Below, piece after piece: positions 5,805 through 7,152 of a stretch of DNA of 33,814 nt. Positions within the stretch are counted from its first letter, which is position 1. Every line of letters begins with the position of its first letter. The notes beneath the pieces are model-generated. The model saw only the letters and a program-made list of their open reading frames with translations, had not been told where the DNA came from and did not search any database. This DNA is from Anaerolineae bacterium. GTDB taxonomy: Bacteria; Chloroflexota; Anaerolineae; Aggregatilineales; Phototrophicaceae. The stretch covers positions 1 to 33,814 of the forward strand of contig JAUZRW010000190.1 of the NCBI GenBank assembly GCA_030950085.1, read 5' to 3'. The position numbers and the translations under genes were made by a program.

Positions 5805-5831
5805 GATTTAGCGATTTAGCTGGTCAGAATC

Positions 5832-5856
5832 GTAGGGGTTTTAGCGTGCTAAACCC
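5832..5856. repeat. GTAGGGG palindrome, degenerate copy downstream of acnA
   Basis: GTAGGGGTTTTAGC faces GCTAAACCC around a GT centre, a hairpin with one bulge. The left end matches the 28-bp palindrome family seen at 20682, 24886 and 33579, but the right end has lost its final TAC. There is no T-tract, so it is a poor intrinsic terminator, although it sits 28 bp after the acnA stop. Confidence 0.6.
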
Positions 5857-5958
5857 AATTGAGAGCGTGTCTTACCATAGATGCGCTCTTTTTCTTCATA
5901 ATGACATACAGAAAATATGCTATGATGGGCATAAAACTGTGTTTGAGAGGAAGCAAAT

Positions 5959-6201
5959 ATGTCCGAAAAAGTTATTCTCGAATTACCAGAAGCAATCGCA
6001 CAACACACACGAGAAGCATCTGAACGTACTGGACGTTCGTTTGAAATGATTCTCATTGACTGGTTAGGGCGTAGTGCCACAAACGCCGATGTTTATCCCC
6101 TGATACCCGATGCTGAATACATTATCGAAACACCCTACGGAAATGAAGCCGCAGCAAAAACCTTAATGAATTTTCTTGATTCTAGCGGAGATAGCGATTA
6201 A
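5959..6201 (+). CDS. Small antitoxin-like / ribbon-helix-helix-like protein
   Basis: The 80-residue protein begins MSEKVILELPEAIAQHTREA. This short beta-strand followed by a helix (SERTGRSFEMILIDWLGR) recalls ribbon-helix-helix DNA-binding proteins and small antitoxins. The second half is acidic (NFLDSSGDSD at the end). A strong GAGAGGAAG ribosome binding site lies 6 bases before the ATG. Its TAA overlaps the ATG of the aspartic protease gene by one base (TAATG), so the two are translationally coupled. The partner is a protease-fold protein, not a recognised toxin, so a toxin-antitoxin role is not established. The gene is likely real; its function is unknown. Confidence 0.75.
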   Translation: MSEKVILELPEAIAQHTREASERTGRSFEMILIDWLGRSATNADVYPLIPDAEYIIETPYGNEAAAKTLMNFLDSSGDSD

Positions 6202-6533
6202 TGCGTTTTCCATATGTTGCTGTAGACAATCAGCAAACCAACCTCATGCCGCGCTTACCACTTAAGTTAACACTTGGTAACCAGTCATTTGAGGTTACAG
6301 GATTGGTGGATAGTGGTTCTGCTGTGAATGTTCTTCCGTACAGATTTGGCTTATCGCTCGGCGCAGTATGGGAAGAACAAACAACTTTAGTATCACTTGT
6401 AGGAAGTTTAGGTAATTTTGAATCTAGAGCATTGGTTGTGATGGCTTCTCATCCACAGATTACTATCGACAAACAAGTAAAGCTGGTATTCGCATGGACA
6501 CAAGCCGAAAATGCACCCGTCATATTCGGATAA
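6201..6533 (+). CDS. Retropepsin-like aspartic protease, prematurely stopped
   Basis: The 110-residue product has the single-chain retropepsin-like active site GLVDSGSAVNVLPY near residue 37 (D-S-G in place of D-T-G). The family pattern continues with LGAVWEEQTT, then VKLVFAWTQAENAPVIFG. Homologues as I know them run on from this point with G-Q-x-N-F-F-x-E-F-D-V-C-F. Here a TAA at 6531-6533 replaces what would be the Gln codon (one base from CAA), and the conserved tail follows in frame. The product as translated therefore lacks the final strand region of the fold and may be inactive. It overlaps the preceding gene by one base. The family call is from motif recognition and is fairly secure. 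Confidence 0.8.
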   Translation: MRFPYVAVDNQQTNLMPRLPLKLTLGNQSFEVTGLVDSGSAVNVLPYRFGLSLGAVWEEQTTLVSLVGSLGNFESRALVVMASHPQITIDKQVKLVFAWTQAENAPVIFG

Positions 6534-6611
6534 ACGAACTTTTTCATGGAATTTGATGTATGTTTCTATCGGTCTCAGTCTGTTTTTGACGTGCATATCA
6601 AAACGGACTAA
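6534..6611 (+). pseudogene. In-frame continuation of the aspartic protease after the TAA
   Basis: Reading on in the same frame after the TAA at 6531-6533 gives TNFFMEFDVCFYRSQSVFDV plus HIKTD, then TAA at 6609-6611. This matches the usual C-terminal block of the family (NFF-x-E-F-D-V-C-F-Y-R-S-Q). The 25 codons have no start or ribosome binding site of their own. The simplest reading is a single nonsense change, CAA to TAA, or a base-call error; suppression is less likely because many genes here end in TAA. Confidence 0.75.
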
Positions 6612-6783
6612 GCTACATCTACCAGTCTGACACTATTTTGGCTAAACACCAACCAACTTGCAAGTAAGTCGGTATATTTTAAGGCAACGACAATGAAATT
6701 TCTAAGAAACTTGTTTAGAATAAGCCTTCATAAAGAAAAGAACGCAGAATAAAGGACTATATAGTAGAGTTTATGCTGAAAAA

Positions 6784-7095
6784 ATGGCGGATACAATCGG
6801 CTTTGAAGACCAATACCCAATCATACAAAAAAGTGTTGAAGATAGCCTATCACAGCTTGACGTAGATATTTTTGTAGCACACTTAAATGATTTGGTTACA
6901 AAGAAAAGCAATAGGAGTTATTCAATCATTTATTATAATCAGCAAGAAGATGAACACTTTGAATTGGGCATGTGCAACCTCGAAATTTTCATTGTCAAGA
7001 ATTCTGAAGTCAAAGAATTCTACCAATCACAAATACACCGAAGTCAAGTTGGTAAAGGGAAATTCTTGAATTTCTACAATAAACATAATTCATGA
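6784..7095 (+). CDS. Hypothetical protein, AT-rich orphan
   Basis: The 103-residue ORF starts MADTIGFEDQYPIIQKSVED and contains RSYSIIYYNQQEDEHFELGM, resembling a small alpha/beta protein. I do not recognise the family. There is no good ribosome binding site; the frame is open upstream to 6724 but offers no better start. Codon use is visibly richer in A and T than in the neighbours, and the flanks (6612-6783, 7096-7152) hold nothing I can identify. It may be acquired, a decayed remnant, or a small immunity-type protein; none of these is supported by a motif. Confidence 0.5.
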   Translation: MADTIGFEDQYPIIQKSVEDSLSQLDVDIFVAHLNDLVTKKSNRSYSIIYYNQQEDEHFELGMCNLEIFIVKNSEVKEFYQSQIHRSQVGKGKFLNFYNKHNS

Positions 7096-7152
7096 ATAAT
7101 AGGCTATTCTGCTTGACAAAACAGACCAAACTTCGTTAGATACATCTCTAAC

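What the first reader, a model, noticed from the sequence alone, without database searches (positions are those of the whole stretch)
6201..6611. Retropepsin-like gene cut by one TAA with the conserved tail still in frame
After the stop at 6531-6533 the same frame encodes NFFMEFDVCFYRSQ, the C-terminal block I know from this family, and the stop stands where a Gln codon is expected (CAA to TAA). The downstream 25 codons show no other damage, so the change is recent, is an assembly or base error, or the codon is read through. The upstream coupled small gene is intact.
Basis: partly seen in the sequence, partly recalled or inferred. Interest (0 to 1): 0.6.

Follow-up and report, generated by a model that had tools for sequence, protein, structure and literature searches.

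The report
Freshly broken bacterial retropepsin gene pair
A small retrovirus-type protease gene in an uncultured Chloroflexota bacterium is cut short by one stop codon near its end, most likely a recent ordinary mutation; the intact gene belongs to a widespread, little-studied two-gene module that is laid out like a toxin-antitoxin pair.

Summary
Confirmed: ORF 6201-6533 (110 aa) ends at TAA 6531-6533 and the frame runs on for 25 codons of conserved family sequence. At that column 104 copies were readable: Gln 86, Arg 9, His 7, Ile 1, stop 1, the window. Against its nearest relative the tail is as constrained as the body (nonsynonymous change 17% in both, synonymous sites saturated). The lesion is young, a base error, or read through. 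Single stops in other copies are scattered and none was found at this column, so a recent nonsense mutation is preferred. No reads were available.

The fold is a retropepsin; the stop removes its last helix and strands. The protease matches PADLOC's uncharacterised candidate PDC-M52, but the partner is unusual: its N-terminus looks ribbon-helix-helix instead of helical. Across the family that N-terminus is exchanged while tail and protease stay. Of 25 broken proteases 15 lie beside an open partner; beside 96 intact ones 93 partners were confirmed, 3 not, none clearly broken. This looks toxin-antitoxin-like; toxicity is untested.

The parts
5959..6201 (+). Partner gene (80 aa): ribbon-helix-helix-like N-terminus (about residues 1-40) and the family's conserved tail YIIETPYGNEAAAKTLMNFL; open and apparently intact
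   Evidence: a profile of 6 such partners finds Arc/TraY-type chains in 9 of 11 PDB matches at E up to 5, best 0.0032; the window's partner alone finds none
6201..6533 (+). Truncated retropepsin-like ORF (110 aa), D-S-G active-site motif at residues 37-39 and VIFG at 107-110, ending at the in-frame TAA
   Evidence: PDC-M52B model E 1.3e-30
6531..6533 (+). In-frame TAA at a column that is Gln in 86 of 104 readable copies
6534..6611 (+). Untranslated or read-through tail: 25 codons plus TAA, coding for the last helix and two strands of the fold
5805..7152 (.). Low-GC stretch holding the pair between the aconitase-like gene and the TPR/MFS genes; the 1,200-bp window from 5959 is 38.1% GC, and about 0.1% of such windows in the contig are lower

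Best explanation
The locus is a two-gene module: a small upstream partner (5959-6201) and a retropepsin-like aspartic protease (6201-6611) whose start overlaps the partner's stop. A recent single nonsense change at a usually-Gln codon cut the protease to 110 residues (stop shown; age inferred from constraint). The product keeps the active-site loop but lacks the C-terminal helix and strands, which in retropepsins help form the dimer and hence the shared active site (recalled; not tested), so it is most likely inactive. The partner stays open. In intact copies the protease probably works as a dimer held in check by, or acting on, the partner, whose N-terminus binds DNA and autoregulates the operon while its conserved tail contacts the protease: a toxin-antitoxin-like or phage-defence-type module (inferred). 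The broken copy is one of many: such proteases are lost repeatedly while their partners often remain.
For: No readable homologue ends here and the column is Gln in 86 of 104. Body and tail show the same constraint against the nearest relative L081 (pn 0.17 in both; ps 0.85 and 0.97), so the whole frame was translated until recently. UAA ends 11 of the 22 large window ORFs that I picked, so it is an ordinary terminator. Single internal stops elsewhere are scattered (residue within the aligned stretch: 54 in L008 and L016, 60, 86, 90, 122; 4, 5, 15, 66 twice, 71, 126). The read-through frame folds as a retropepsin (pLDDT 89.5; 5c9f_A Z 12.9, rmsd 2.4 over 118 residues), and H114-117, E118-123 and E128-133 lie beyond the stop. 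The protease matches PDC-M52B. Of 25 broken proteases, 15 have a profile-confirmed open partner; of 96 intact ones with room upstream, 93 have one, and the other 3 (L047, L051, L098) are unconfirmed, each with a partner-like ORF by eye. If lesions fell by length alone, 15 to 0 has probability about 0.0016.
Against: No reads were available, so a base error in this draft contig is not excluded. The tail shows no second lesion or relaxed constraint, which readthrough would also explain. No second genome of the genus is among the 98 family genomes, so the stop cannot be seen segregating. If the 3 unconfirmed partners were counted as broken, the decay asymmetry would be weak (about 0.08, my arithmetic), and related loci are not independent. 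Toxicity, inhibition and proteolysis are inferred only.
Confidence: 0.7

Rival explanations
1. Base-calling or assembly error: the genome carries a sense codon and the gene is intact.
For: The genome is a 266-contig draft; the rest of the frame has no further lesion; the tail is as constrained as the body.
Against: Comparable single stops occur in other copies from separate assemblies, though some of those could be errors too. The contig's error rate was not tested.
Confidence: 0.19
2. Programmed or leaky readthrough: TAA is decoded at some rate, giving a short and a full-length protease from one gene.
For: The tail is open and constrained.
Against: Of 104 readable copies only the window has a stop at this column, whereas a programmed stop should be conserved; internal stops elsewhere are scattered; UAA is a common terminator in this window (11 of 22 chosen ORFs) and is generally the least leaky stop in bacteria (recalled).
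Confidence: 0.06
3. The 110-aa form is a functional short variant, for instance a dominant inhibitor or a binding-only protein.
For: It keeps 110 of the 136 residues and the active-site motif.
Against: No readable relative ends there, and an unused tail would not stay conserved for long.
Confidence: 0.05

Closest known systems
PDC-M52 (PADLOC-DB 2.0.0 phage defence candidate; M52A + M52B)
   Same: The protease matches M52B (window 1.3e-30; intact relative L011 3.8e-59); a small partner gene lies directly upstream; partners match M52A in 15 of 16 rows of A3, best 1.9e-17.
   Different: The window's partner and 5 other RHH-type partners do not match M52A (0 of 6); the window's protease is truncated. 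No paper with the term PDC-M52 is in the library searched.
Retropepsin-like aspartic proteases of bacteria (APRc of Rickettsia conorii, PDB 5c9f)
   Same: Fold (Z 12.9, rmsd 2.4, 118 residues); D-[ST]-G motif; hydrophobic-hydrophobic-Gly motif.
   Different: 9% identity in the structural alignment; no sequence-level PDB relative found with the profile; encoded with a small partner gene.
Type II toxin-antitoxin modules
   Same: Small upstream gene overlapping the second one; partner N-terminus exchanged between RHH-like and helical (Unstab_antitox PF09720 in 7 of 16 at E up to 1, best 2.5e-4) with a conserved tail; the second gene is often lost beside an open first gene.
   Different: No paper joining retropepsin or aspartyl/aspartic protease with such modules turned up (the one hit concerns Candida); no toxicity data.
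COG2856 Zn-protease/Xre pairs (Makarova et al. 2009, PMC2701414; passages read)
   Same: A protease encoded with a DNA-binding regulator, proposed there to cleave the repressor.
   Different: Metalloprotease instead of aspartic protease; Xre regulator; often fused.

Membership tests
Retropepsin-like aspartic protease (clan AA) | D-[ST]-G active-site motif | tested here: met
   D37-S38-G39; D and G invariant in A1
Retropepsin-like aspartic protease (clan AA) | Single-lobe retropepsin fold | tested here: met
   Model m89accdaf5261 against 5c9f_A: Z 12.9, rmsd 2.4, 118 aligned. The model is of the frame with the stop read as a residue, not of the predicted product; 2 of 5 models were good
Retropepsin-like aspartic protease (clan AA) | C-terminal helix and strand of the dimer interface present in the product | tested here: not met
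   The predicted product ends at residue 110; H114-117, E118-123 and E128-133 lie after the stop. Their dimer role is recalled, not computed
Retropepsin-like aspartic protease (clan AA) | Proteolytic activity | not testable with these tools
   Needs an assay
PDC-M52 | M52B protein | tested here: met
   PDLC04692 E 1.3e-30
PDC-M52 | M52A protein beside it | tested here: not met
   No M52A match for the window's partner; position and conserved tail agree
PDC-M52 | Anti-phage activity | not testable with these tools
   Listed as a candidate only
Type II toxin-antitoxin module | Two adjacent small genes with a DNA-binding antitoxin | tested here: inconclusive
   Overlapping pair. RHH-like partner by weak matches of the set of six (PDB profile best 0.0032; FitA-like_RHH 0.0045, CopG_antitoxin 0.015); the window's partner on its own matched no RHH family
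Type II toxin-antitoxin module | Second gene toxic alone, neutralised by the first | not testable with these tools
   Asymmetric decay is indirect

The most novel reading that the evidence does not exclude
The PDC-M52 pair is a protease-based toxin-antitoxin-like (perhaps abortive phage-defence) module: a retropepsin that is harmful unless restrained by, or waiting to cleave, a partner whose DNA-binding N-terminus is interchangeable and whose tail recognises the protease. The window then shows a freshly disarmed toxin beside a retained antitoxin. (Lowered from 0.35 after the stricter partner recount.)
Probability: 0.32. Interest if true: 0.75.

Novelty: new variant of a known kind. Interest (0 to 1): 0.4.

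Why it matters
The stop itself is an ordinary lesion. What matters is the module it exposes: the protease family has a match in 203 of 388 genomes searched from one cyanobacterial order (E up to 1e-10) and in 43 of 98 genomes of the window's family, the window's included, yet I found it only as a database candidate. A bacterial retropepsin with a swappable DNA-binding partner would be a new kind of protease-regulated pair, testable by simple growth and phage assays. The RHH-type partners do not match the M52A model (0 of 6), so scans that need both models would miss such pairs.

Tried and rejected
Programmed stop: not the leading reading, because the column is sense in 103 of 104 readable copies and other stops are scattered. 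Fourteen further rows were not parsed by the pattern; by eye ten of them read Gln there, and the others are garbled, distant or different. L008 and L016 looked like one inherited stop at the same codon; L016 is nearer to L006 and L011, which have CAA there, so they look independent.

Stop reassignment: UAA ends 11 of 22 chosen window ORFs. Old pseudogene: rejected by the constraint in the tail. Pfam and NCBIfam did not place the window's protease or partner above cut-off. Toxin_ToxA for the partner (E 0.084) and UBZ_FAAP20 for ORF 6784-7095 (E 0.027) were taken as chance. The partner model from the mixed alignment A3 was poor (pLDDT 60.4) and no fold search was made with it. A PDB sequence search with the protease profile found only three weak unrelated chains. 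With the protease of L011 there was no match in 50,697 phage records and a match in 3 of 72,556 plasmid records.

Synteny: five neighbour proteins of the window found no match at E 1e-3 in the 131 other loci then held (flanks are short). In 33 other family genomes with both the MFS neighbour's relative and the protease, the two never share a contig (recounted by eye); many of these assemblies are fragmented, so this is weak evidence for mobility. Paper searches: (listings and abstract starts only); passages of PMC2701414 and PMC11514479 were read. Remarks on the dimer interface and on UAA leakiness are recalled.

Limits of the counts: the match list is capped. Loci L162-L171 were chosen because a stop had been flagged; of the 15 flagged copies seen, 7 have an internal stop and 8 merely their normal end. 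Their broken proteases are not used in the 0.0016 figure, nor is the figure for 22 loci printed. L027 was counted intact but is frame-damaged by eye, and is counted as broken. One search's 98 intact copies include the distant L075, which leave out, while L041 and L130 (contig ends) enter there as not broken. One search used a laxer partner test (95 of 97 with an ORF, 2 more at edges); one search is the stricter one. The trees are poorly resolved.

Full report
What is there. The window lies in a 5.09-Mb draft genome of 266 contigs. Its family also holds G704, whose aligned copy (L076) is identical to that of L013, titled as an uncultured Chloroflexi bacterium; that is the basis for calling the window Chloroflexota. 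At 5959-6201 lies an 80-aa gene, and at 6201-6533 a 110-aa ORF that shares one base with its stop. After TAA 6531-6533 the frame stays open for 25 codons to TAA 6609-6611.

The tail is family sequence. A profile of 19 rows (18 relatives and the window's 110-aa ORF) aligns through the stop to the end of the frame (E 2.5e-56). Of 104 copies readable at the stop column, 86 have Gln (59 CAA, 27 CAG), 9 Arg, 7 His, 1 Ile, and only the window has a stop. The nearest relatives are L081 and L043, which read IIFGQMNFF and VIFGQMNFF.

How old is the lesion? Against L081 the body shows 85% of synonymous and 17% of nonsynonymous sites changed, the tail 97% and 17%; against four other relatives the tail shows 15-22% and the body 22-31% of nonsynonymous sites changed. 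The tail was therefore selected as protein for nearly all of that time. If it is no longer translated, the 13 matching conserved codons bound the time since the stop to about 0.10 neutral substitutions per site (95%).

Why a nonsense mutation is preferred. Programmed readthrough should leave a conserved stop; instead, stops in other copies are scattered. In one search, of 124 copies at 123 distinct loci, 98 were classed as intact, 24 as broken and 2 as cut by a contig end (L027 was later moved by eye to broken). Seven of the 24 align over most of the profile with one internal stop: the window, L008, L016, L044, L054, L120 and L128. In a cyanobacterial order, 203 of 388 genomes have a match; of 15 stop-flagged copies from its capped listing, 7 have an internal stop, at aligned residues 4, 5, 15, 66 (twice), 71 and 126, and 8 only their normal end. 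UAA ends 11 of 22 chosen window ORFs. A base error cannot be excluded without reads, and the contig's error rate was not tested. Whether the family's lesion rate is unusual was not tested against a control family.

What the protein is. The frame with the stop read as a residue folds with mean pLDDT 89.5 (two of five models good, three poor) into a retropepsin: best PDB match APRc of Rickettsia conorii, 5c9f_A, Z 12.9, rmsd 2.4 over 118 residues (Foldseek E 2.9e-4). Pfam Asp_protease_2 is matched by 18 of 19 members of A1 at E up to 1, best 3e-7, and by the window at 0.04, below cut-off. The stop removes H114-117, E118-123 and E128-133. In retropepsins this end contributes to the dimer and so to the active site (recalled); the 110-aa product is probably inactive.

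The partner. Of 116 copies with a readable start, 98 have an upstream gene that scores with one of two N-terminal seed profiles, 92 helical and 6 RHH-like; the other 18 were unclear, many of them helical by eye. In 93 of the 98 the partner's stop lies between 8 bases before and 11 bases after the first aligned base of the protease. Helical partners resemble Unstab_antitox (7 of 16 members of A3 at E up to 1, best 2.5e-4) and end in a tail around PYDAxxAA. The window and five relatives have a ribbon-helix-helix-like N-terminus on a similar tail: a profile of these six finds Arc- or TraY-type chains in 9 of 11 PDB matches at E up to 5, best 0.0032. The window's partner alone matched no RHH family or chain, so this assignment rests on the set. 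Two cyanobacterial copies, L151 and L155, also score better with the RHH seed profile (11.1 and 9.7 bits). On protease trees the fewest class changes are 2 (105 rows) and 4 (139 rows), though many forks are unresolved. An exchanged N-terminus on a constant tail is what antitoxins often show (recalled).

Asymmetric decay. With a profile-checked partner test, of 25 broken proteases 15 lie beside an open partner, 9 have none confirmed and 1 is at a contig edge. Of 98 not broken, 93 have a confirmed partner, 2 are at a contig edge and 3 (L047, L051, L098) were not confirmed, though each has a partner-like ORF by eye. No clearly broken partner was seen beside an intact protease. If lesions hit by length alone, 15 to 0 has probability about 0.0016; if the 3 unconfirmed were broken partners it would be about 0.08 (my arithmetic). 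Related loci are not independent. It fits a second gene that is harmful, or useless, without the first, but it is only a pointer.

What is known. PADLOC-DB holds the pair as PDC-M52: the protease as M52B (window 1.3e-30), partners as M52A (15 of 16 rows of A3; the row that fails is the window's). The RHH-type partners do not match M52A (0 of 6). In the library searched, no paper holds the term PDC-M52, none joins retropepsin with toxin-antitoxin or aspartyl protease with addiction module and antitoxin, and the one for aspartic protease with type II toxin-antitoxin concerns Candida. On the Rippkaea plasmid pP880101 the pair lies near a HicBA pair and transposases.

Verdict. The most likely event is a recent nonsense mutation that disarmed the protease of an RHH-partnered variant of PDC-M52. 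The lesion is ordinary; the module is worth testing.

Noticed in passing
window 6784-7095: A 103-aa ORF of 33% GC next to the pair has a match in 1 of the 98 family genomes searched, its own, and no convincing family match.
   Followed up: partly
L008 2986-3405 and L016 2986-3405: Two cyanobacterial copies carry stops (TAG and TAA) at the same codon after VLPY with the rest of the frame open; they look independent.
   Followed up: partly
L120 1037-2105: Two copies of the module in tandem, the first with a TGA near its end.
   Followed up: no
L027 2735-3366: The partner frame runs into the protease's N-terminus and the protease continues in another frame: a fusion, an indel or a sequencing error.
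   Followed up: no
L151 and L155: Two cyanobacterial proteases, 98% identical to each other, with RHH-like partners, whose nearest other rows have helical partners.
   Followed up: partly
L172 951-3354 (Rippkaea orientalis plasmid pP880101): The pair lies near a HicBA toxin-antitoxin pair and IS elements.
   Followed up: no
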